Below, piece by piece: positions 1-14,055 of a DNA stretch of 64,000 bases. The stretch is from positions 1,227,001-1,291,000 of the forward strand of contig NZ_FXUY01000002.1 of assembly GCF_900182985.1 (NCBI RefSeq), in the 5' to 3' direction. Position numbers and translations under genes: made by a program. Positions within the stretch are counted from its first letter, which is position 1. Each line of letters starts with the position of its first letter. Below the pieces are notes generated by a model, which worked only from the letters and a program-made list of their open reading frames with translations, did not search any database and was not told the origin of the DNA. This stretch comes from Pseudomonas helmanticensis (lineage in GTDB: Bacteria; Pseudomonadota; Gammaproteobacteria; Pseudomonadales; Pseudomonadaceae).

Positions 1-2160
1 CGATAACCTCAGCGATCTGATGAACCGCCTGGTGAAAACCTGGGGCGTCTACGACCACTCAATGATCAACGGGCAAAGCCGCGCGATCGAAGGTGACGTC
101 TTCACCTGGTTGAGCGATTCGACCCGCGATGCCATGTTCGCGGAGGCCAGCCTTTCGTTGACCTCAAACGGCGATCTGCGCAAGCAACTGTGGATCGGTT
201 ATCTCAGCGCAGGTGTCAAAGTATTTGGCCCGATGGCAGTGGTCGGATGGCCGATAGCGCTTCCAGTGATCGGCGCCAGCATTGCCGGCATGGGTTTGAA
301 CATCGATCAGGCGGTCAACGGAAAAACCACCGCGCAACGCAAGGCCGGGATCCTCGGTGCAGTGCTCAACGGCATCGACATGCTGTTCAATCTCCTGGTG
401 CTCAAAGGGCCAGGGGCATTGACGGAGATCGGCCCTGAGGTCGATGCCGCAGAAGCTCGGGAAATGGCCGATCTGACTGGCGAATCTCCTGACATCGAAC
501 AACCCCCGCCTACTCCTGCGCAATTGCTCCCCGAGGCGATGGATTGGCCACAGATCAACACCCGGCCGCTGAGTTCCGCGTCATCGCTGGAAGACATCCC
601 GCGACCGCCGGTACCGCAACACTGGCAAGCCAACGAGCTGTTGGAAGGACTGACGCCGGGCAGCGAGCCCGGCAAGCTTCAGGGGATTTACCTGCTCGAC
701 TCCACGCCCTCCACCGCCATCATGATCGATGACTGCGCCTACTACGTACGTTACGAGTCCGACCTCAACGGTGGTGGGCACTGGGCCATAATCGACCCGG
801 AAAGCCCTGACAGTTTCACCCGTTCGGTTGCCGTACGCCTGAACGCCCAGGGTGAGTGGGAAACCATGCCGCGTGGCGGTCTCAAAGGTGGCGGAAAGAC
901 ACCGCGCAGGTTGGATCCAGCACGCAACGTCAGCCCGTCCCAGCGCCGACCAGTGCACTGCCGGCATCGGAATACGACATGCCCGCTGCCCTGAAATCGC
1001 ATCTGCAGCAAGGTGCTGCGGGGCTCGACGATGAGGCACTGCGCGATGTCTACGACAGCCTCAACGCGTTCGATGCCTACCGTGATTTCAAGGTCATCAG
1101 AAAACGTCTCTACCACGACGCGCTGCGGTTCTTTGCCACGCTGCAACTACCCGCTCGTCCTCCCATGCCGGTCCTGGCGGCGGATGCCTCTGCCGAGGAG
1201 ATCATTGACAGGATTTTGCAACATGCCCGAGGGTTGGTCATCGGTGAAAGTCATACCGCCATTGGCAGTAAACAGTGGCTGATCGAAAACATGGAGTTAC
1301 TCGCCAGCAAACAAGTGAAGACCCTGTACATGGAGCATCTGCTGACCGACTTTCACCAGGCGGCCCTCGACGAATTCTTCAGCACCGGGGTCATGCCCAG
1401 CGAGCTCGAGTCCTACCTCAACGCACTTGATGTCGGCAACATGACCGATCCGCTGCAGCGCTACACGTTTCTTGAACTGGTCAGGGAAGCCCGAAATCAA
1501 GGCATCCATATTCAGGCCATTGATTGCATGGCGAGCTACCGGCTTTACGGCATGGAGATCACCACCGCCCAGGCCCTTGCGATCGACGAGACAGCACGGC
1601 AGAAAATGATGAACTACTTCGCAAGGTCGGTCATTCGCGCCGATCAGACTGTGCGGGGGGCGCACAAGTGGGTGGCACTGATGGGCAACTCACACTCGAA
1701 CACCTTCGACGGCGTTGCCGGCGTCAGTGAGCTGGAGGAAGCCATCGGCATTCGTGTCGAGGATGTCGCCGAAGGAGTATCACGTGGCATCGAAGTCGAC
1801 CCGGGGAAAATCCTCCCTCTGGGCGGTACCGTGTTTGACCGCTCCGCACTGGTGCGAGGCGACCTGCGGCTACAAATGGAAACACCGTGGATCGCACAAA
1901 CCATGGCGGAATTCGAAACGCTGCTGCCGCGTTACGGCATGTACTCCTTGAAACAACAACCCAACATGACATTTATCGTGCATCGCAGTCGCAGCAAAGA
2001 ACTGGTGCGCACCATTATTGAAAATGACGGGAGACGCTTCTACATTGAACGCCCGCGCTGGCCTTCGGTCAGCGGCAAACGCTATGACAGCATCAAGACG
2101 TTGCTACAGGGACTGGATGAAATGGGCATGAGCCTCGCAGGCTGGTCGAAGCCGCTGTAA
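1..2160 (+). pseudogene. large dermonecrotic/MARTX-type toxin, 3' part, frameshifted
   Basis: The reading frame is open from the first base of the window, so the 5' part is missing. Frame 2 runs to a stop at 994, but from about 890-905 the protein-like sequence moves to frame 1 and continues to 2160. Joining GGLKGGG to KDTAQVGSS across GGCGGAAAGAC restores one continuous protein, so one base appears to be lost there. The first segment has a hydrophobic region (about residues 65-100) like the translocation part of large toxins. The second carries an EreA/ChaN-like domain: GESH, then MEH 27 residues later, then GNSH. The His...Glu...His spacing recalls the Ras/Rap1-specific endopeptidase effector of MARTX toxins. 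Family assignment is by motif only. The frameshift could be a true mutation or an assembly error. Confidence 0.7.
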
Positions 2161-2334: not shown

Positions 2335-2538
2335 TTAGCTCTTGTTTATTGCATCCTCTATGGGCAGGAGCGCTGAATGTGCGGTGTCCCGGCTAAACGC
2401 AAGGTTCAACTGGCGCAAAAAAATTTTAAGCTCAGCTTCGCTGCCGTCCCGCTGCACCTCTCGAAGTAGCGCGGCGACATAGCGGGGGTCAGTGCGGAAG
2501 ATTTCAGCCAATACCTCGTCATGGGACCGGTCTTTCAT
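2335..2538 (-). pseudogene. truncated XRE/COG3636-type antitoxin-like protein
   Basis: 67 codons. The first 45 residues (MKDRSHDEVLAEIFRTDP, then ELKIFLRQL) read like the N-terminus of the small HTH addiction-module antidote proteins common in Pseudomonas. The sequence then diverges and stops where the HTH should begin. It ends next to the left attachment site, so truncation by element formation or deletion is likely. I see no intact partner toxin gene beside it. The frame stays open upstream to 2925, but that stretch does not look like protein and overlaps the start of the patatin gene. Confidence 0.5.
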
Positions 2539-2701
2539 TCCAATGAACCTGTTATGTATCGAGGACCAATAGCCCCTCCGTCCTGATGAGCATCCCCCGG
2601 CACCAAAGCTCTCTCGCCATTTTACAGACCGGCGAGTAAGCTCAACGCTAGAGGCCAAAAGCCATCCGAAAAGATAAGCGGCAAAGGACGAATGATTAAG
2701 G

Positions 2702-5191
2702 ATGACCAGTGTACCGTCACCGTTGACCCCAGACCAGTTGGCCGCGCACTCCCTGCTATCCGAGCTCCGAACCCGCATTGCCGTGCAGCCGCTACCATAC
2801 CAATATGGGATTGAGACACGAGCATTGGAGAGCCTGTGGGAAATCTTTGGGCTGGCCAGAAATGTTATGAAAGCATTCCCTGGGTGCAAAGTTTTTTCAC
2901 AAATCACCACGGACATGCTGAACACTGAACTTCGCCCAGTGACGGCGAAGTGGCATAGGGCGCATCAAGCCGGAGTGTTGGACTCAAAAGACGGGGCCAA
3001 TGAATTTCGCATAGATCTTAATGCTCTAAGAGTTAAACTGATTGATTTCTGCGAACAGTTACAACTGATGGCCTATGGTGGAATTTGCAAGGATAAGATT
3101 ACCCCACCAGTAGTAAATTTTGACGACTTGGAAAAATGCTTCATCCCGATAGAATTCGGTATTCCGAATGATACAGTTGGAAAGGTAAATAATTTCTGCG
3201 ATATAAACACATCAGAAGCTGCTGAAATTCAATCCCGCCGAAAACATTACAGCATAAATAAAACTGAAAAAACTGACGCAGTTGGCTTATCGCTATCCGG
3301 AGGGGGTATCCGATCAGCGACATTTTGTCTCGGTGTCGTCCAAGTATTATCTGAAAAAAAGCTAATGAAAGACTTCGACTATCTTTCAACCGTATCCGGA
3401 GGCGGATACATAGGAAGCTTTATCACATCAACACTTAGTCAAAAAGAAGGCTACGAGGCAATAAGCAAGCCATACGGTCCAGACACAGACCCAGTCCGCC
3501 ACATCAGACAAAACGCAAAATATTTAAGCGCTGCAAATTTAAAGCAACGATGGATGATGGTAACGGGGGCCCTAGCAGGACTTATACTAAACCTATCAGC
3601 ACCGATAGGCATAATTGCAGCTATAGCTTTAATTAGCAATTATACTTCCATGCTAAACATCCCAAATTTTTGGCTTTGGATTGCTGGAGTTTCCGGTGGT
3701 GCTAGTATAATCGGAATAATCTCCTACGGTATAGGTTTGCGTTTCGGATGGGGTGCCAAAGCCGGAAGTATTATAGTTGCTGTAGGCTCAGGCACCATAA
3801 CAATCGCACTATTAACGTTCATAGTAAGCAAGGGATATGATTCACTGGGGAAGGTCACCTCCGATAACTGGAAGACTGCAACTTACTTAGCCGCGCTAGC
3901 ATTTGCAATCCCATTGATAGCGAAATTTATACCAATATTTAATAGCCTCCGCGCTAAAAACATACTTCTAAAATATTCCTTAATTTTAGCTGCTGTTATC
4001 GTCCCCCTAGTCTCACTTGCACTACTGTACAGTTTCAGAGCAGTGGGAAGTCTCTCCCAGGTTTCGACAATCTCTTGGCTTAGCGGGCAAGTGCTGCTTA
4101 TATTAATTATTGCAACCTGTTCCATTATTTCACTATGCCTGAACATAAATCTGACCGGCCTACACAAACTTTATAGAGACCAGCTCGCAAAGACATTTGT
4201 GGAAAATGATAACAAATCTGACGATCTGCCATTGGAATTTGTCAACACCAGTTATAGAGCACCGTATCATTTAATCAACACGACTGTAAACTTACCCTCT
4301 AGCAAAAATCGCACTCTTAGAGATCGACGTGGAGATTTCTTTATTTTTTCAAAACATTGGTGCGGTTCAGCAGCGACCGGCTATTCCTCTACAGGCCAAT
4401 GGAAAAGTAACGGTGCCGCAGTTGATCTAGCGACTGCAATGGCTATTTCCGGGGCAGCAGTTTCGCCCCAGATGGGCCCTAACTCTGTTTCTAGTGTGTC
4501 GGCACTGATGACATTATTGAACATAAGGCTGGGCTATTGGATAAGTAATCCTAAAATCGCAAGCAAGAATTCTCCCGGCTTTTTATGTCTTCTCCGTGAA
4601 ATGACCGGCATCGGCATGAATGAAAATAATCCTTGGCTGAACCTCTCAGATGGCGGACATATTGAGAACATGGGCCTCTATGAGCTTCTCCGCCGCCGTT
4701 GTAAATTTATCGTGTGCGTGGACGGTGAGGCCGATCCGCGCTCAACATTTGAGGGACAATTGACATTAGTTAGGCACGCTCAGATTGATTTTGGTGTACG
4801 ACTTGAACCGAGGCTTGATGACATCCGGCTTGATCCAAAGTCAACCCTTAGTAGAACTCACTCTCATCTTCTAAGAGTTCACTACCCTGACGCAGGGCCA
4901 GGGAAGCCGGAAGCTATTGGTCTGATGCTATACCTAAAACTATCGTTGACCGGAGACGAAACAGAACTGCTTAAGCGTTATCGCTCCATAAGCCCCGACT
5001 TCCCGCACGAATCTACTTTAGATCAATTTTACACTGAAGAGCAATTTGAAGCCTATAGACAGCTTGGGGTACACGTAGCGGAAGGAGTTTTCTCCAAAGC
5101 ATTGTTGGACGAAAACACGACCCCTGCCGATGTCAGAGAGTGGTTCAAACAATTAGCTAAAAACATGCTCGAATCCGCTGATAATATTTAA
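2702..5191 (+). CDS. patatin-like phospholipase with internal membrane domain
   Basis: 829 aa. Residues about 195-240 hold the patatin motifs: the glycine-rich oxyanion loop GGGIRS, and the nucleophile-serine segment YLSTVSGGGYIG. The catalytic Asp motif DGGHIENMG is at about 649-658. Between them, residues about 280-485 contain six or seven hydrophobic helices, so the lipase halves are split by a membrane-embedded insert. A helical N-terminal region (1-190) precedes the lipase core. Patatin-like phospholipases act as membrane-damaging effectors in several phage-defence systems; a similar role here is inference from the fold and neighbours. The gene is AT-rich compared with the chromosome and converges on the four-gene operon at 5250-8472. 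Start ATG 2702 is tentative because the nearest AGGA lies about 13 nt upstream. Confidence 0.8.
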   Translation: MTSVPSPLTPDQLAAHSLLSELRTRIAVQPLPYQYGIETRALESLWEIFGLARNVMKAFPGCKVFSQITTDMLNTELRPVTAKWHRAHQAGVLDSKDGANEFRIDLNALRVKLIDFCEQLQLMAYGGICKDKITPPVVNFDDLEKCFIPIEFGIPNDTVGKVNNFCDINTSEAAEIQSRRKHYSINKTEKTDAVGLSLSGGGIRSATFCLGVVQVLSEKKLMKDFDYLSTVSGGGYIGSFITSTLSQKEGYEAISKPYGPDTDPVRHIRQNAKYLSAANLKQRWMMVTGALAGLILNLSAPIGIIAAIALISNYTSMLNIPNFWLWIAGVSGGASIIGIISYGIGLRFGWGAKAGSIIVAVGSGTITIALLTFIVSKGYDSLGKVTSDNWKTATYLAALAFAIPLIAKFIPIFNSLRAKNILLKYSLILAAVIVPLVSLALLYSFRAVGSLSQVSTISWLSGQVLLILIIATCSIISLCLNINLTGLHKLYRDQLAKTFVENDNKSDDLPLEFVNTSYRAPYHLINTTVNLPSSKNRTLRDRRGDFFIFSKHWCGSAATGYSSTGQWKSNGAAVDLATAMAISGAAVSPQMGPNSVSSVSALMTLLNIRLGYWISNPKIASKNSPGFLCLLREMTGIGMNENNPWLNLSDGGHIENMGLYELLRRRCKFIVCVDGEADPRSTFEGQLTLVRHAQIDFGVRLEPRLDDIRLDPKSTLSRTHSHLLRVHYPDAGPGKPEAIGLMLYLKLSLTGDETELLKRYRSISPDFPHESTLDQFYTEEQFEAYRQLGVHVAEGVFSKALLDENTTPADVREWFKQLAKNMLESADNI

Positions 5192-5199
5192 TCCAAAAG

Positions 5200-5225
5200 A
5201 ATGCCCGAGCAATCCCGGGCATTTT
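5200..5225. terminator. terminator between convergent genes
   Basis: AATGCCCG / CGGGCATT stem with an 8-nt loop, followed by TTTTGT on the plus strand, 9 bp after the patatin stop. The minus-strand Nmad2 gene ends 25 bp away, so the hairpin may serve both directions. Confidence 0.7.
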
Positions 5226-5249
5226 GTAAAAAATCATCCTCAAAAAACC

Positions 5250-5888
5250 TTAAACCGTCACCTTATTATTTTCCGCCGAATAACGAGACTTCGCCAATTC
5301 GAAGTCATAAGGATCCCCATATAATCGATTGGCGTCATATTCACGTTCTAGATAATCAATTAGAGGCTGCGCCTGATGAAGCGGAAATTTACGATGATCT
5401 CTTCCATTAGCGTACCCCAGATCCTTAAGTATTTTTTCTGGAATTACAACCGCACCTGCGCCAAAGTAAAAAAAATAATCCGAAATTAAAACAACGTCAG
5501 TTTGCGTATCATTTTTTATATTGTGTGGATTAGGCGAGCCGTCTGGAAAGCTGTGATGCGAGTTAAGCTGCTGCCAGTTACCATCCTTTTTCCAATAGAT
5601 GTTGTCCCCTACAATCATTTTCTTACTGCCATTTCTCAACGGTTTTTTATCTTTATATAAAGGATTGCTCCAATAACCATCAAAAGTTTCCGAATGAGAG
5701 ACCTTCATTGCAAAAATACACTTACCAGTAGCCCTTAGTCTCCCTCCCCCCATCCCGACGATCCAGTCATTCACCTTGGCCACTCTTCGAGTACGAGGCT
5801 TACAGGTAGCTAACGTACAAAGACCATGGAACGGATTCGGAGCAAAACCAAAATCGCGATCCACTACATACATATATACTTTCGTCAT
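5250..5888 (-). CDS. Nmad2-like nucleotide modification associated protein
   Basis: 212 aa from ATG 5888, two bases after the TAG of the TIR gene, which implies translational coupling. The N-terminus (YMYVVDRDFGFAPNPF, then HGLCTLATCKPRTRR and DWIVGMGG) matches what I know of the nucleotide modification associated domain 2 family. That family was named from operons with DNA-base-modifying enzymes; its activity is not established to my knowledge. No signal peptide or membrane segment. Last gene of the four-gene leftward operon. A GTG nine bases further upstream (5897) is possible, but it would overlap the preceding stop. Confidence 0.7.
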   Translation of the reverse strand: MTKVYMYVVDRDFGFAPNPFHGLCTLATCKPRTRRVAKVNDWIVGMGGGRLRATGKCIFAMKVSHSETFDGYWSNPLYKDKKPLRNGSKKMIVGDNIYWKKDGNWQQLNSHHSFPDGSPNPHNIKNDTQTDVVLISDYFFYFGAGAVVIPEKILKDLGYANGRDHRKFPLHQAQPLIDYLEREYDANRLYGDPYDFELAKSRYSAENNKVTV

Positions 5889-5890
5889 CG

Positions 5891-6388
5891 CTAGCACTCT
5901 GAGTTCGCTGCTCCATTAACAGTGTCACGCACAGTTCCATCTGGATTTTGGAAAGCATTCTCCCCGGCATCAATAGCGCTCATAATACTATCTGAGTTCC
6001 AGCCAACTATTGCGGACGCATACTTCTCCAAACTTGCAGGTATATCCGACTCTTTGCCTCCCTGCTCGTAAACCCCCACAATCCGCTTACCCTGAGCGTG
6101 CGCTTGATCAATTTCCCAATTCACCCAAGGGCGCTGGTGTGTCTGCTGGCCAATCAAAACAACAACTGTTGATGCCCAGGAGACTTTCATTCGAAGAAGC
6201 CGCCTTATTGTCGATTCCCTGACCATTCCTTTATCAAGTCTTTCTTGGTTAGCAGGTTTGGCACGAATTGAGCTATTACGAATATCCCAACCCTTCGACC
6301 CAAGCAATTTGGCAAACTTGTCAACTAGCGCGTCGTCACGGTGGTGGTGACTTATAAACAAATGCCTACGACTTCCAGATTTGCTCAT
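5891..6388 (-). CDS. ThsB-like TIR-domain protein
   Basis: 165 aa from ATG 6388, which has a strong GAGGGG ribosome site 7 nt upstream; the longer TTG start at 6403 lacks one. RHLFISHHHRDD at residues 8-19 is the TIR-like beta-A/loop, and RPWVNWEIDQA (about 87-97, Glu92) fits the conserved Glu position of the MTH538/ThsB TIR-like family. ThsB proteins in Thoeris use NAD to make a signal molecule that activates ThsA. No ThsA-like SIR2/SLOG gene is present here, so this TIR either has another effector or acts directly. The extra C-terminal tail (about 125-165) has no motif I recognise. Confidence 0.78.
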   Translation of the reverse strand: MSKSGSRRHLFISHHHRDDALVDKFAKLLGSKGWDIRNSSIRAKPANQERLDKGMVRESTIRRLLRMKVSWASTVVVLIGQQTHQRPWVNWEIDQAHAQGKRIVGVYEQGGKESDIPASLEKYASAIVGWNSDSIMSAIDAGENAFQNPDGTVRDTVNGAANSEC

Positions 6389-6451
6389 TACCGTACCCCT
6401 CAAGGTTATCCATAACTTAATAAACGAGGAATCAATAAAACAAGAACCGCT

Positions 6452-7351
6452 TTAAACCATGCTAGACTCTTCACCTTCAGCATAAGTTATAGACCTAGAA
6501 TCCTGATCGATGAGTAATCGAGCACCATTAGATTTCAAAACTTTACGCCAAACTTCAAACCCGAGAAGAATAGCCTTCTGCCACTCTCCCGGCGAGCGCG
6601 CCTTCACTTCCAAAAGAGAAGTAACACCTTTGATAGTACGTAAGAGCTTATAGTCAAGCGCCGTTACCCCTTCAAGCCAATTGTGCTCTTTCGCATAATC
6701 GAACACGAGAGCAACAACAGCCTCATCTATAACCTGTGCGCGCCCTCCATCTTGCACTTCATCAATATCAGGTGCACTTTTTCTCTTACGCTTCATAAGA
6801 CTACGGATCACGGGCGACCACCCCAGAACTGCGATATAGGCAAGGTGAAATACATCATGAAATCGATAGCCGTCAGGATCATCTGCATTGTCAGTTAGAT
6901 AATCCCCAATTTGCACATCGTTCATTAGCATTCTTATCTTAACTTTACCCTCAACATTGACCTCATCCAACTTAATCTCAAATTTTCTAGGCAATTTTTC
7001 TTGTTCTGGAAAGCTTTCGTCAAATACCGTGGCACTGGTGTCGCCGTGTCCCCAACGCCCATTAGCCTTTTCTAGGTTTTTCTGCGCCACATCTTCAAGA
7101 CTGAGCCCAGACTTTTCGGCCACGTTCGCGATATACCAAAGCAAATCGCCCAACTCCTCACAAATCTTTTCTTTAAACCGCAAATGCGAATCGCCGTCTC
7201 GCAGACGTTTTTTATATTCGCTAAGAAGCTCTCCTGTTTCGCCGGCCAAACCAAGCAACGGAACCATCAAGTCAATCCCCGCTGCTCCTGCACTCTTTGA
7301 AGGAACACGATCAGTTAATTGAGCAAGCTGCTGATAATAGTTAAAGTCCAT
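6452..7351 (-). CDS. MazG-like NTP pyrophosphohydrolase with extra C-terminal domain
   Basis: 299 aa from ATG 7351, with GGAG 8 nt upstream; a GTG at 7360 would overlap the preceding gene. Residues about 36-75 hold the MazG metal-binding signature: GLAGETGELLSEYKK, then KICEELGDLLWYIANVAEK. These all-alpha enzymes hydrolyse (d)NTPs to the monophosphate and PPi. The second half has its own conserved-looking helices (YRFHDVFHLAY; RAQVIDEAVVALV), consistent with the MazG C-terminal domain seen beside thymine hypermodification enzymes. It starts 2 bp after the stop of the upstream gene, so the two are surely co-transcribed. Confidence 0.8.
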   Translation of the reverse strand: MDFNYYQQLAQLTDRVPSKSAGAAGIDLMVPLLGLAGETGELLSEYKKRLRDGDSHLRFKEKICEELGDLLWYIANVAEKSGLSLEDVAQKNLEKANGRWGHGDTSATVFDESFPEQEKLPRKFEIKLDEVNVEGKVKIRMLMNDVQIGDYLTDNADDPDGYRFHDVFHLAYIAVLGWSPVIRSLMKRKRKSAPDIDEVQDGGRAQVIDEAVVALVFDYAKEHNWLEGVTALDYKLLRTIKGVTSLLEVKARSPGEWQKAILLGFEVWRKVLKSNGARLLIDQDSRSITYAEGEESSMV

Positions 7352-7353
7352 TT

Positions 7354-8472
7354 TTAACACTCCAAGTTCAACGCTGCCTGGGTGGTAGCGCGAAAAGATG
7401 ATCGGCCCTCTGAAAACTCAAGCGATCTAAAATCTGCAGCAACCCGGTCATTGATCCCCCATTTAGGTGGATACCATGGCATGTCCAACGAGCCAGTCGG
7501 AGAAAACTTCTGTTTAATACGAGTACGCCCTGAGACACCTAAAATCTCTGGATGAGCAACACGGGCGTACTTATCAACTTCGCAAAAAACGTTCTGACAA
7601 TCTATTAGCTGAAGTGGCCTTCCCCACAATGAGTCAAACTCAATACCCAAGCGTTCAAATTCACGCTCCTGATTTTCAGCCATCATCCGTATTAGTTGAG
7701 CTTCATCGACCCCGGCTGTAGTTTTGAAGCATTTTTTTAAACCATCTAGAGCGCCAGGCCCAGGCATTACGAATTCCATTTCTGAAAAACATGTGACTTC
7801 AGAATAATTTATATCAGTCACAAATTGATATGCCAAAAAATTGCCGATAGTAGGATAGCTTCGGATGATTTCAAATGCTTTTTGCATATTGCCCAAGCCA
7901 TGCAAAATTTTCGGAAGTTTTTCATCCATCATTCGTTCAAGCAGTTTGAGATGATTCTGATGCTTCGATGGATATCCAAATGCGGAACTCCCCGGAGGCA
8001 TGATGTATGCGGCCGAGTAAATCCGTCCCCCTGCATGCATAGCTCGGCTTAGGACTCTATCGTATGTATCAAAACTATAACTTCGATACGTAATAGCTCC
8101 AATCTCTCTTTCCAAAAGCTCCCAAGTTTCGATTTTATTGAAAAACTTGAACAGCAGGATCCTGAAAACCACCTCCTCTGGAGAGTCGCAAAGATCAGTG
8201 CGATAAATTACATTCCTTATTAAATATTGGCTAACTCGATCTGAGGCGCGGTATGCGTTTGTGAACTTATGAGCCAAAATAACAGGATCAAAAGTCCAAG
8301 GCCCAGAAGATCCAATCAATCTTTTCCTAAAAACTTTTTGACGCTCAGCAGCAAACCTCCAATAGCTTTCATATACTGGAGTCACCTCAAGTTTTTTAGA
8401 CACCTCAGATGTGCTACTTTGAACATTTGAGCGCAACTCAAAATACTTACCGTCGAACTCAATTGCAACCAT
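7354..8472 (-). CDS. protein resembling 5-hmdU DNA kinase helical domain
   Basis: 372 aa from ATG 8472 (GGAG 10 nt upstream); an upstream ATG at 8523 would add 17 arginine/proline-rich residues that look non-coding. Recognisable blocks are FTNAYRASDRVSQYLIRNVIY, EEVVFRILLFKFFNKIETWE, YSAAYIMP, PTIGNFLAYQFVTDINYSE (about 205-224) and FVMPGPGALDGLKKCF. I associate these with the helix-hairpin-helix-like domain of alpha-glutamyl/putrescinyl-thymine pyrophosphorylases and 5-hydroxymethyl-dU DNA kinases of phages. There is no P-loop, so kinase activity is doubtful; binding or processing of a modified pyrimidine is a better guess. First gene of the operon. Confidence 0.65.
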   Translation of the reverse strand: MVAIEFDGKYFELRSNVQSSTSEVSKKLEVTPVYESYWRFAAERQKVFRKRLIGSSGPWTFDPVILAHKFTNAYRASDRVSQYLIRNVIYRTDLCDSPEEVVFRILLFKFFNKIETWELLEREIGAITYRSYSFDTYDRVLSRAMHAGGRIYSAAYIMPPGSSAFGYPSKHQNHLKLLERMMDEKLPKILHGLGNMQKAFEIIRSYPTIGNFLAYQFVTDINYSEVTCFSEMEFVMPGPGALDGLKKCFKTTAGVDEAQLIRMMAENQEREFERLGIEFDSLWGRPLQLIDCQNVFCEVDKYARVAHPEILGVSGRTRIKQKFSPTGSLDMPWYPPKWGINDRVAADFRSLEFSEGRSSFRATTQAALNLEC

Positions 8473-8593
8473 CACGCGCCATCTCCATTGTGGTGGACTC
8501 GCCGTGGCGAATCGAGGCATCACCTACCAATATACTCTTCCCTGCATACAAGCGTGCGACGTAATCTGCAACACTTCCAGCCGAACCTTCCCA

Positions 8594-12877: not shown

Positions 12878-13368
12878 TCACTGGCCTGCGTCACAGACGC
12901 CCCGTCCAAGTGCTTGGATTTGGTTGCTCGCCCTAGATCTATCAGGCCGCTGTAGGGCGGTGTGGGACTATTTCGATTCCCTGATGCCCATCAAATAAGC
13001 TCCTTAAGATCGAGCGGTTTGGGCCGATCCAGCGGCGCTTCTGCAAATACGTTAGACGAATCTGTACATAGCTCTACGCTCTTTGGCAAGGGCAAGACCT
13101 GACCTCGCCAGCGCATTTTTATACCGCTATCGGCGTCCAGGATCAGTCCGAATGACCGGTGTGAGACAGACAGCGGACCTTGACATGATTCGAGCTTGCG
13201 TAGGCACAGTGATATCAGTGATCCTTCAGCAGATGCACTTGGAAGAGCCTTTTCTTCCTGGGGCGCCTAACCGTAGGGATTGTCCTGCCAATGCCATCGT
13301 CCTCGCCATTGCGTGAGGTTGGCCAGCGTACAAGGCGCAAACTCTGCGCTCTGGGAGATAGAACTGAT
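12878..13368. other. gene-poor 490-bp stretch with a possible minus-strand remnant
   Basis: No intact gene is supported. On the minus strand a frame of about 88 codons without a start is open from about 13264 to 13001. It contains SFGLILDADSGIKMRWRGQV and ends PKPLDLKELI-stop, then overlaps an ATG that opens only 7 codons. It reads more like protein than neighbouring frames and may be the tail of a deleted gene. I could not identify it. Confidence 0.3.
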
Positions 13369-14055
13369 ATGGCGACATGCACAGCACCTAGAAACGGCCA
13401 CCGCTCCGCGAGCGCGGCAGCTAATTGTCCCGCATGCAGAAATCGCTACAGTAGCTATGGGGCGCGCTCGCAACCCTACCCATCCTCAACATCATCCTCG
13501 TCGCGGGGTGGCGGTGGCGGTGGACGGACGTCGCGCGTACTGTCTAGTGCGGTGCCGGAAATATATCGGCGTCCACTATCAGAAGTACCAAGCCTCGTGC
13601 GTAGCGACGTTCCAACGCCGGCACAATCTGACGGGCAAACCTATGACGTATTCGTATCTCATGCGTCTGAGGACAAAGACGATTTTGTCAGGCCCCTTGC
13701 CAATGCCTTGGTTGCTGCTGGCCTCAAGGTGTGGTTCGACGAGATGACCCTACGCATAGGGGATAGCCTAAGACAGAAGATTGATAAAGGCCTCGCCAAT
13801 AGCCGCGTAGGGCTTGTCGTTCTCTCCCCCGCCTTCATCAAGAAGGGATGGACCAACTACGAGCTTGACGGAATTGTCACCCGCTCTGTTTCAGGTGAAC
13901 AGGTTCTTCTGCCGATTTGGCACAACATTACGAAGCAGCAGGTGATGGATTTCAGCTCCTCGATCGCTGATAAGGTAGCCCGTAGCACCGCGGTACATAC
14001 CATTGATGAGATTGCTTCTGAGATCGCAGATTTGCTGAAATCTAGTGATGCGTAG
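13369..14055 (+). CDS. TIR-domain protein, predicted NADase type
   Basis: 228 aa from ATG 13369. The N-terminus CTAPRNGHRSASAAANCPAC (residues 4-23) with HRSASA and CPAC is a small probably metal-binding head, followed by a Ser/Gly-rich linker. The TIR domain spans about 90-228: YDVFVSHASEDKD, WFDEMTLRIGDSLRQKID, VVLSPAFIKKGWTNYELDGIV. Glu165 of WTNYE is the expected catalytic glutamate of NAD-consuming TIRs. It is a different subfamily from the ThsB-like TIR at 5891-6388. It stands alone between the trb genes and the repeat array. Confidence 0.82.
   Translation: MATCTAPRNGHRSASAAANCPACRNRYSSYGARSQPYPSSTSSSSRGGGGGGRTSRVLSSAVPEIYRRPLSEVPSLVRSDVPTPAQSDGQTYDVFVSHASEDKDDFVRPLANALVAAGLKVWFDEMTLRIGDSLRQKIDKGLANSRVGLVVLSPAFIKKGWTNYELDGIVTRSVSGEQVLLPIWHNITKQQVMDFSSSIADKVARSTAVHTIDEIASEIADLLKSSDA

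What the first reader, a model, noticed from the sequence alone, without database searches (positions are those of the whole stretch)
5250..8472. Four-gene TIR/nucleotide-modification operon, candidate new defence system
Seen: four same-strand genes. The 2-bp gaps at the first and last junctions imply coupling; a 63-bp gap separates mazG from the TIR gene. Products are a 5-hmdU-kinase-helical-domain-like protein, a two-domain MazG, a ThsB-like TIR and Nmad2. Known: HMUDK/aGPT-PPlase, MazG and Nmad proteins were grouped computationally with pyrimidine hypermodification; ThsB-type TIRs signal in Thoeris. Inference: the operon may sense or handle modified pyrimidine nucleotides (of a phage with hypermodified thymine, for instance) and trigger TIR output. 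It lacks ThsA, so it is not standard Thoeris. I do not know of a description of exactly this set.
Basis: partly seen in the sequence, partly recalled or inferred. Interest (0 to 1): 0.9.

Follow-up and report, generated by a model that had tools for sequence, protein, structure and literature searches.

The report
TIR immune core with swappable enzymes
Four neighbouring bacterial genes form one version of a widespread, probably anti-virus module that pairs a TIR immune protein with a likely base-reading protein and with exchangeable enzymes that handle DNA building blocks; no experiment has yet shown what triggers it.

Summary
The four genes are real and tightly ordered: HMUDK_hel, MazG/MazG_C, ThsB-type TIR, Nmad2. 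The recurring unit is a core, TIR directly upstream of Nmad2, plus enzyme slots. Of 28 TIR-linked loci found through Nmad2 alone, 14 carry HMUDK, 12 a uracil-DNA-glycosylase-family protein, none both; 2 are cut off. A second slot holds MazG or thymidylate synthase (once radical SAM). Predicted folds, with modest scores, fit: HMUDK resembles base-transferring or base-removing enzymes, Nmad2 the YTH/EVE/ASCH base readers. All 40 TIRs next to Nmad2 have a cysteine in their last five residues. Patatin-type proteins lie near 8 of 37 linked loci (four being profile seeds), 0 of 67 HMUDK-only and 0 of 22 other Nmad2 loci; one is 58 bp from Nmad2 here. No SLOG-type ThsA was found in the genome (positive control), so it is not standard Thoeris. 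Novelty is limited: DefensePredictor (PMC13092281, parts read) reports 5-hydroxymethyluracil kinase and thymidylate synthase in validated E. coli defence units and predicts MazG, NMAD and UDG systems. Defence and trigger here are inferred.

The parts
7354..8472 (-). HMUDK_hel protein (372 aa from ATG 8472; a longer GTG start at 8523 is possible). Predicted fold of the base-transferase / base-glycosylase kind; no P-loop kinase domain found
6452..7351 (-). MazG pyrophosphohydrolase domain plus MazG_C domain (ORF from 7360)
   Evidence: Pfam PF03819 8.6e-10 and PF18722 7.2e-77; HMUDK and MazG profiles hit one and the same ORF in L023 and L024
5891..6388 (-). ThsB-type TIR protein with WEI glutamate and C-terminal Cys (ORF from 6403)
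   Evidence: PF08937 5e-20; PADLOC PDLC00418 1.1e-56; PDB 8wcf and ThsB 9b7d/6lhy; alignment of 40
5894..5896 (-). Codon of the last residue of the TIR, the cysteine found within the last five residues in all 40 TIRs next to Nmad2
   Evidence: against 3 of 37 other TIR/TIR2 hits in the loci and 71 of 1017 neighbour ORFs of 100 aa or more
5250..5888 (-). Nmad2 protein, predicted PUA-like (YTH/EVE/ASCH) fold (ORF from 5897)
   Evidence: PF18753 1.2e-68; AF2 pLDDT 83.6, pTM 0.84; TIR directly upstream in linked loci
5200..5223 (.). Short G+C-rich inverted repeat between Nmad2 and the convergent patatin-like gene, a likely shared terminator (read by eye)
   Evidence: sequence; inference
2702..5191 (+). 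Patatin-like protein, 829 aa, six TM-like segments, convergent to the operon and 58 bp from Nmad2; possible effector or accessory part
   Evidence: PF01734 6.7e-08; TM-like segments and DGG; block 2408-8385 conserved in L001 at 73.8% nt; homologue within 100 bp downstream of an Nmad2 gene on the same strand in L092

Best explanation
This is one architecture (HMUDK + MazG) of a modular TIR-Nmad2 immune system carried on mobile elements. Shown here: TIR and Nmad2 are a gene pair in one of two kinds of Nmad2 loci; they are joined by one base enzyme (HMUDK or UDG family) and mostly by a nucleotide enzyme (MazG or thymidylate synthase, once radical SAM); in this element and its Pseudomonas relative a patatin-like gene travels with them. 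Inferred: MazG and HMUDK act on a pyrimidine deoxynucleotide or on modified pyrimidines in invading DNA and yield a ligand, such as a freed or altered base or monophosphate; Nmad2, with a modified-base-reader fold, binds it; this releases the TIR, which consumes NAD+ or makes an NAD-derived signal; infected cells stop growing or die, here possibly through the patatin-like phospholipase. Order of steps and the identity of the ligand are guesses.
For: Nmad2 was found in 40 genomes by five sampled searches; 15 of these and 14 of 16 plasmid records are of the TIR-linked kind, one shared, so 28 loci. In the 26 of these 28 that are not cut off, exactly one of HMUDK (14) or UDG (12) is present. HMUDK/UDG labels change 6 times on the Nmad2 tree, at least 3 forced by well supported branches. 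Slot counts in 37 loci: HMUDK+MazG 13, HMUDK+TS 9, UDG+MazG 10 (one also with an rSAM hit), HMUDK+MazG+TS 1, HMUDK+rSAM 1, HMUDK with neither 1, cut off 2. One ORF hit by both HMUDK and MazG profiles in L023 and L024. Folds. No Nmad2 match at E 1e-5 in 50,697 phage records. Patatin-type association 8/37 against 0/67 and 0/22.
Confidence: 0.45

Rival explanations
1. The set makes a modified pyrimidine nucleotide or base, as a poison incorporated into phage DNA, as a self mark, or as a decoy whose loss is watched by TIR-Nmad2, instead of sensing a phage modification.
For: Thymidylate synthase, thymidylate kinase, dCTP-deaminase-like, O-methyltransferase and radical SAM genes occur in HMUDK-type loci. 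Many HMUDK operons without TIR carry an HTH/M78-protease pair whose tested representatives resemble CapH/CapP. Nearest fold is a base-decorating transferase. A thymidylate synthase and a 5-hydroxymethyluracil kinase are in E. coli units reported protective, with dNMP kinase in the same figure legend (PMC13092281; the text does not say whether they form one unit).
Against: The window operon has none of these synthetic genes, nor have the 10 UDG-type loci checked (of 12), apart from a TMK-profile hit in L092 and an rSAM hit on an unrelated maturase in L100.
Confidence: 0.25
2. A Thoeris variant: the TIR makes a known ADP-ribose signal and an effector other than ThsA, here the patatin-like protein, receives it; HMUDK, MazG and Nmad2 are the phage sensor.
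For: TIR matches a PADLOC ThsB model over its length. One relative (L095) has a STALD/SIR2 ThsA-type gene directly downstream of the UDG gene (STALD 1.1e-56). TIR2 genes, some with a SLOG gene, lie beside several loci.
Against: No STALD or ThsA_Macro match in the whole genome (the second without positive control); among nine plasmid records with TIR-Nmad2 only one has STALD over the cut-off, two more are below it. Patatin-type genes are near only 8 of 37 loci. A C-terminal Cys is not a ThsB feature known to me (recalled).
Confidence: 0.15
3. A DNA-maintenance or base-modification set of the conjugative element, not an immune system; the TIR is a scaffold.
For: The operon sits beside trb conjugation genes, and 5 of 40 TIRs next to Nmad2 have lost TIR motifs in part or whole.
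Against: Other defence-type genes stand close by on several plasmids (CapV-like phospholipase, ThsA-type gene, TIR-SLOG pairs), spread is patchy, and the WEI glutamate column holds Glu in 37 of 40 TIRs.
Confidence: 0.1
4. Chance neighbours on an island with no joint function.
For: Among the loci examined only window, L001 and L089 have the exact four-gene order.
Against: Slot pattern in 26 of 26 uncut loci, shared ORF in L023 and L024, co-occurrence test.
Confidence: 0.03

Closest known systems
DefensePredictor systems (PMC13092281; abstract, sections 5, 7, 15 and passages of 8 and 14 seen; figures and supplement not seen)
   Same: Same protein kinds: 5-hydroxymethyluracil kinase and thymidylate synthase in validated E. 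coli units, dNMP kinase and NMAD in the legend of that figure; MazG, MazG-C, dUTPase, NMAD and (legend) UDG in predicted, untested systems
   Different: The held main text has no occurrence of TIR, Toll or Thoeris; which NMAD is meant and which domains share a unit is not told in the text; no slot exchange, reader fold, terminal Cys or patatin link in the parts I read
Thoeris (ThsA/ThsB)
   Same: ThsB-type TIR with the WEI glutamate
   Different: No SLOG-type ThsA found in the genome; partners are base and nucleotide enzymes plus Nmad2
Phage thymine hypermodification enzymes (5-hmdU DNA kinase, aGPT-PPlase, PUGT; pathway roles partly recalled)
   Same: HMUDK_hel family and the predicted fold of PUGT
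   Different: No P-loop kinase part; the 40 listed of 471 phage matches are at most 34% identical; host-side, linked to TIR and Nmad2; no Nmad2 match in phage records
Brig DNA glycosylase defence (PMC11078745, PMC13160076; passages seen)
   Same: UDG-type base removal as phage defence, conceivable in the UDG-type relatives
   Different: Brig1 acts alone and Brig3 with a glucosyl hydrolase; HMUDK models as another glycosylase fold; TIR-Nmad2 not mentioned in the passages seen
CBASS CapV-type phospholipase effectors
   Same: A patatin-type phospholipase belongs to some loci; L089 has a CapV-like gene overlapping HMUDK
   Different: I made no search for a cyclase; the window protein is a larger patatin-like protein with TM-like segments and no PADLOC match

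Membership tests
Thoeris | ThsB-type TIR protein | tested here: met
   PF08937 5e-20; PADLOC ThsB PDLC00418 1.1e-56
Thoeris | ThsA with SIR2/SLOG (STALD) | tested here: not met
   PF18185 0 of 1 in G000, where no control genome rang; the same search finds STALD in the L095 plasmid at 1.1e-56
Thoeris | ThsA of the Macro type | tested here: inconclusive
   PF20016 0 of 1 in G000, but no positive control rang
Thoeris | TIR makes an ADP-ribose-type signal | not testable with these tools
   needs biochemistry
DefensePredictor units with 5-hydroxymethyluracil kinase | HMUDK_hel protein | tested here: met
   PF18723 1.5e-109; that the paper's kinase is of this family rests on its label '5-hmdU DNA kinase'
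DefensePredictor units with 5-hydroxymethyluracil kinase | NMAD domain (if in the same unit, which the text does not say) | tested here: inconclusive
   Nmad2 present; the paper's text does not say which NMAD
DefensePredictor units with 5-hydroxymethyluracil kinase | thymidylate synthase and dNMP kinase beside it (if in the same unit, which the text does not say) | tested here: not met
   neither in the window operon; both occur in relatives such as L003
DefensePredictor units with 5-hydroxymethyluracil kinase | protection against phage | not testable with these tools
   needs plaque assays
Phage thymine hypermodification pathway | HMUDK_hel / PUGT-like fold | tested here: met
Phage thymine hypermodification pathway | P-loop 5-hmdU kinase domain | tested here: not met
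   only HMUDK_hel found at E up to 0.1, residues 48-327 of 389
PUA-like base readers (YTH, EVE, ASCH) | PUA-like fold of Nmad2 | tested here: inconclusive
CBASS | CD-NTase cyclase in the locus | not tested
   no search was made for it

The most novel reading that the evidence does not exclude
A new immune signalling chemistry: the base enzyme (HMUDK or UDG) frees a pyrimidine base from a deoxynucleotide or from foreign DNA, supplied in the deoxymonophosphate form by MazG or thymidylate synthase; the TIR, whose C-terminal cysteine tail docks on or reacts within Nmad2, joins that base to ADP-ribose in exchange for nicotinamide or is unlocked by it; Nmad2 is the receptor of the base or base-ADP-ribose, and patatin-like proteins are one of several outputs. 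The swap of HMUDK for UDG would then set which base is sensed.
Probability: 0.12. Interest if true: 0.92.

Novelty: new variant of a known kind. Interest (0 to 1): 0.68.

Why it matters
It joins two worlds usually described apart, TIR signalling and pyrimidine base or nucleotide modification, in one modular unit seen here in Pseudomonadota, Planctomycetota, Chloroflexota, Bacteroidota, Bacillota, Cyanobacteriota and Actinomycetota. The slot structure gives a direct experimental handle: swapping HMUDK for UDG on the same TIR-Nmad2 core should change which phages or bases trigger it.

Tried and rejected
Brig1 as the nearest relative of HMUDK: rejected; Brig1 is UDG-like by its authors' model (PMC11078745, passages), HMUDK models as the HhH-type glycosylase/transferase kind (the name HhH is recalled). 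Sequence search of PDB with HMUDK, MazG and Nmad2 singly, and with HMUDK and Nmad2 as profiles: nothing meaningful. DNA search of E. coli genomes with HMUDK in distant mode: no match, so I could not place the E. coli DefensePredictor locus. Iyer 2013 and Burroughs 2015, the likely sources of the Nmad and HMUDK names, are recalled only; the DOIs I tried are not held, nor a third paper. Paper searches on HMUDK/MazG/TIR, Nmad2 and kin names, Thoeris/MazG/TS, Brig1, PUGT, Thoeris/patatin, 'nucleotide modification associated domain', and TIR/UDG/MazG gave no description of TIR-Nmad2 in their listings; passages of PMC9503650 and a word search of PMC7159879 (no hits) gave none either. Subscription papers, figures and supplements are outside this.

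Considered and dropped: kinase activity of HMUDK (no kinase domain); a fixed four-gene operon (exact order only in window, L001, L089 among the loci examined). The first labelled tree wrongly labelled the two truncated loci L091 and L163 as HMUDK and was redone without them and without the solo rows. In that tree both Nmad2 genes of L092 are labelled UDG, although the UDG gene is next to only one of them. Rows dropped before counts: Nmad2 ORFs of 450 bases or less (L161, L169, L173, L174) and L175 (no ORF). L171 is a very distant Nmad2 match, and L157 is an Nmad2 of the linked type on the tree without a TIR found. One of the two Nmad2 genes of L152 has no TIR directly upstream. ORF starts in my scripts are simply the first possible start, so lengths and small overlaps are rough. 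The NMAD2 profile was built from HMUDK-linked loci, so its bit scores favour linked members; on the tree 22 of 24 solo sequences form one group (support 91/89), but three linked sequences (L065, L093, L164) are its sister, so the linked kind is not one clade on that drawing. The class counted was chosen because it holds a linked locus (G283), so its rate is not a fair estimate for bacteria. No library of predicted cellular structures was on hand.
Full report
Four minus-strand genes at 8472-5250 encode HMUDK_hel, MazG+MazG_C, a ThsB-type TIR and Nmad2, with strong Pfam scores and a near full-length PADLOC ThsB match for the TIR. Junctions are 2, 63 and 2 bp. The genome (G000, 6.53 Mb, two contigs) holds one HMUDK_hel gene, this one. 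To the right lie trb conjugation genes, TrbJ and TrbL, so the operon looks like cargo of a conjugative element. To the left, 58 bp from Nmad2 and convergent, is an 829-aa patatin-like protein with six TM-like segments. The stretch 2408-8385, patatin-like gene plus most of the operon, matches Pseudomonas guariconensis (L001) as one block at 73.8% nucleotide identity, while the other matches to that locus are separate pieces.

Linkage from the HMUDK side. Of 80 HMUDK loci from species genomes (the best 80 of 104 were kept), 13 have a TIR-Nmad2 pair in the locus and 7 have all four genes: L001, L020, L026, L046, L048, L065, L077. Most of the 80 stand in or near a different conserved operon: a protein without Pfam match (C1, 62 loci), an M78 protease (C2, 56), an HTH gene (C4, 39), a 4'-phosphopantetheinyl-transferase-like small protein (C3, 39), MazG, and dCTP-deaminase-like (37), thymidylate synthase (13) or thymidylate kinase (9) genes; these names rest on one representative of each cluster, of which C2 and C4 resemble CapP and CapH. 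In L023 and L024 HMUDK and MazG profiles hit one open frame.

Linkage from the Nmad2 side, which is not biased by HMUDK. Nmad2 (PF18753) occurs in 6 of 398 genomes of the phylum, 13 of 385 of the class of G283, 11 of 246, 10 of 296 and 1 of 194 genomes of the phyla of L077 (Planctomycetota), L062 (Bacteroidota) and L031 (Cyanobacteriota), 40 different genomes in all; in 16 of 72,556 plasmid records; and in none of 50,697 phage records at E 1e-5. The stretches around them fall into two kinds: Nmad2 with a TIR gene directly upstream and nucleotide enzymes around it, and Nmad2 with none of these. The TIR-linked kind comprises 15 of the 40 genomes and 14 of the 16 plasmid records, one shared, so 28 loci; the other 25 genomes, some with fragments only, and 2 plasmids are not linked. 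On a tree of 65 Nmad2 proteins 22 of the 24 solo ones form one group with moderate support, next to three linked ones. Of the 28 linked loci 14 have HMUDK, 12 a UDG-family gene, none both, and 2 (L091, L163) are cut off by the record or contig end. L100 and L177 are near copies, so the independent number is slightly lower. In the class of 385 genomes, 8 have HMUDK_hel and 13 Nmad2; 4 have both against 0.27 expected, P 5e-5, 3 of them within 6 kb; the fourth, G492, has HMUDK on another contig and UDG next to Nmad2.

Slots. Over 37 linked loci (HMUDK-found and Nmad2-found together) the counts are HMUDK+MazG 13, HMUDK+TS 9, UDG+MazG 10 (in one, L100, the profile also hits an unrelated rSAM maturase), HMUDK+MazG+TS 1 (L152; the TS hit is a 142-aa piece), HMUDK+rSAM 1, HMUDK with neither 1 (L007), cut off 2. 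L176 and L177, analysed apart, add two UDG+MazG. MazG and TS thus rarely occur together in linked loci. HMUDK and UDG labels are interleaved on the Nmad2 tree of 39 with 6 changes, at least 3 forced by well supported branches: partners have been exchanged on a lasting TIR-Nmad2 core. The deep branches of that tree are weak.

The TIR. It is of ThsB type; PDB relatives are 8wcf and ThsB 9b7d/6lhy. In 40 TIRs next to Nmad2 the WEI glutamate column holds Glu in 37; L026, L148 and L176 lack it, and L100, L148, L176, L177 are degenerate in the SH..DD region. All 40 have a cysteine within the last five residues; in the 38 counted by script it is the last residue in 23. Against this, 3 of 37 other TIR or TIR2 hits in the same loci (L045, L003:3525-4430, the second TIR of L144) and 71 of 1,017 neighbour ORFs have a Cys in the last five. 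Degenerate TIRs keep it, so its role is probably not tied to NAD+ cleavage; docking on Nmad2, in which Cys24 and Cys29 are invariant in 14 sequences, is one idea.

Output. Patatin-type proteins (profiles seeded with window and L092, and with L089 and L095) lie within 7 kb of 8 of 37 linked Nmad2 loci, of 0 of 67 HMUDK-only loci and of 0 of 22 other Nmad2 loci. Four of the eight are the seeds themselves and L001 is the window's near relative, so the independent support is L003, L090 and, for the N-terminal domain only, L020. In L092 the gene follows an Nmad2 gene on the same strand within 100 bp and is 35% identical to the window protein over its length. In L089 a CapV-like phospholipase gene overlaps the start of HMUDK. 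This link is the weakest of the claims.

Known or new. PMC13092281 (DefensePredictor, 2026; abstract, sections 5, 7 and 15, other passages) reports a 5-hydroxymethyluracil kinase and a thymidylate synthase among domains newly validated in E. coli defence units, lists dNMP kinase and NMAD in the legend of the same figure without saying which share a unit, and lists MazG, MazG-C, NMAD and (legend) UDG in predicted, untested systems. So nucleotide-modification-type defence is already in print, and the window operon is a new variant of that kind. What the searches did not bring up is the TIR-Nmad2 core, the HMUDK/UDG exchange, the terminal Cys and the patatin link. Thoeris membership fails on ThsA of the SLOG type.

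Mechanism. Shown: genes, order, conservation, slots. Inferred from folds: base enzyme and base reader. Guessed: that the ligand is a pyrimidine base or deoxymonophosphate, that it unlocks the TIR, and that the outcome is NAD+ loss or signalling with a phospholipase in some loci. The chief rival is that the set makes a modified nucleotide as poison or decoy; TS-type relatives favour that, the UDG-type and the window set do not.

Noticed in passing
L002-L080 (HMUDK loci, most without TIR-Nmad2): A second, commoner HMUDK operon: small protein, CapH-like HTH, CapP-like M78 protease, C1 (no Pfam match), HMUDK, MazG, phosphopantetheinyl-transferase-like protein; looks like a regulated conflict system of its own.
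   Followed up: partly
L023:7905-9884, L024:7902-9893: HMUDK and MazG/MazG_C profiles hit one open frame, evidence that the two proteins work together.
   Followed up: partly
window 13291-14055 +: A second TIR protein of another kind (TIR_2; PADLOC PDC-S66 5e-70) near the trb genes, without terminal Cys.
   Followed up: partly
L090, L092, L094, L095, L096, L099, L138: Beside several TIR-Nmad2 loci stands a TIR protein of about 380 aa (L095 copy: PADLOC ThsB PDLC00434), in L094, L095, L096 and L099 with a second protein that in L095 is SLOG cluster 3 (PF18180); perhaps a separate TIR-SLOG system.
   Followed up: partly
L139-L142, L149-L151, L153-L156, L158-L160, L165-L168, L170, L172, L178, L179: A group of Nmad2 genes without TIR, MazG, HMUDK or UDG hits nearby; function unknown, a natural control family.
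   Followed up: partly
window 20-2160 +: Two overlapping open frames (20-994 and 856-2160), the second with a weak ChaN/Tiki-type match below Pfam's cut-off; possibly one larger gene that is interrupted. Described only.
   Followed up: no
L100, L176, L177, L148: TIR-like genes next to Nmad2 that have lost the SH..DD motif, and in L148 and L176 also the WEI glutamate, but keep the terminal Cys and the UDG or HMUDK neighbours.
   Followed up: partly
L157 (8 kb around G401:C7:81896): An Nmad2 that groups with the TIR-linked ones on the tree but has no TIR or partner hit nearby.
   Followed up: no
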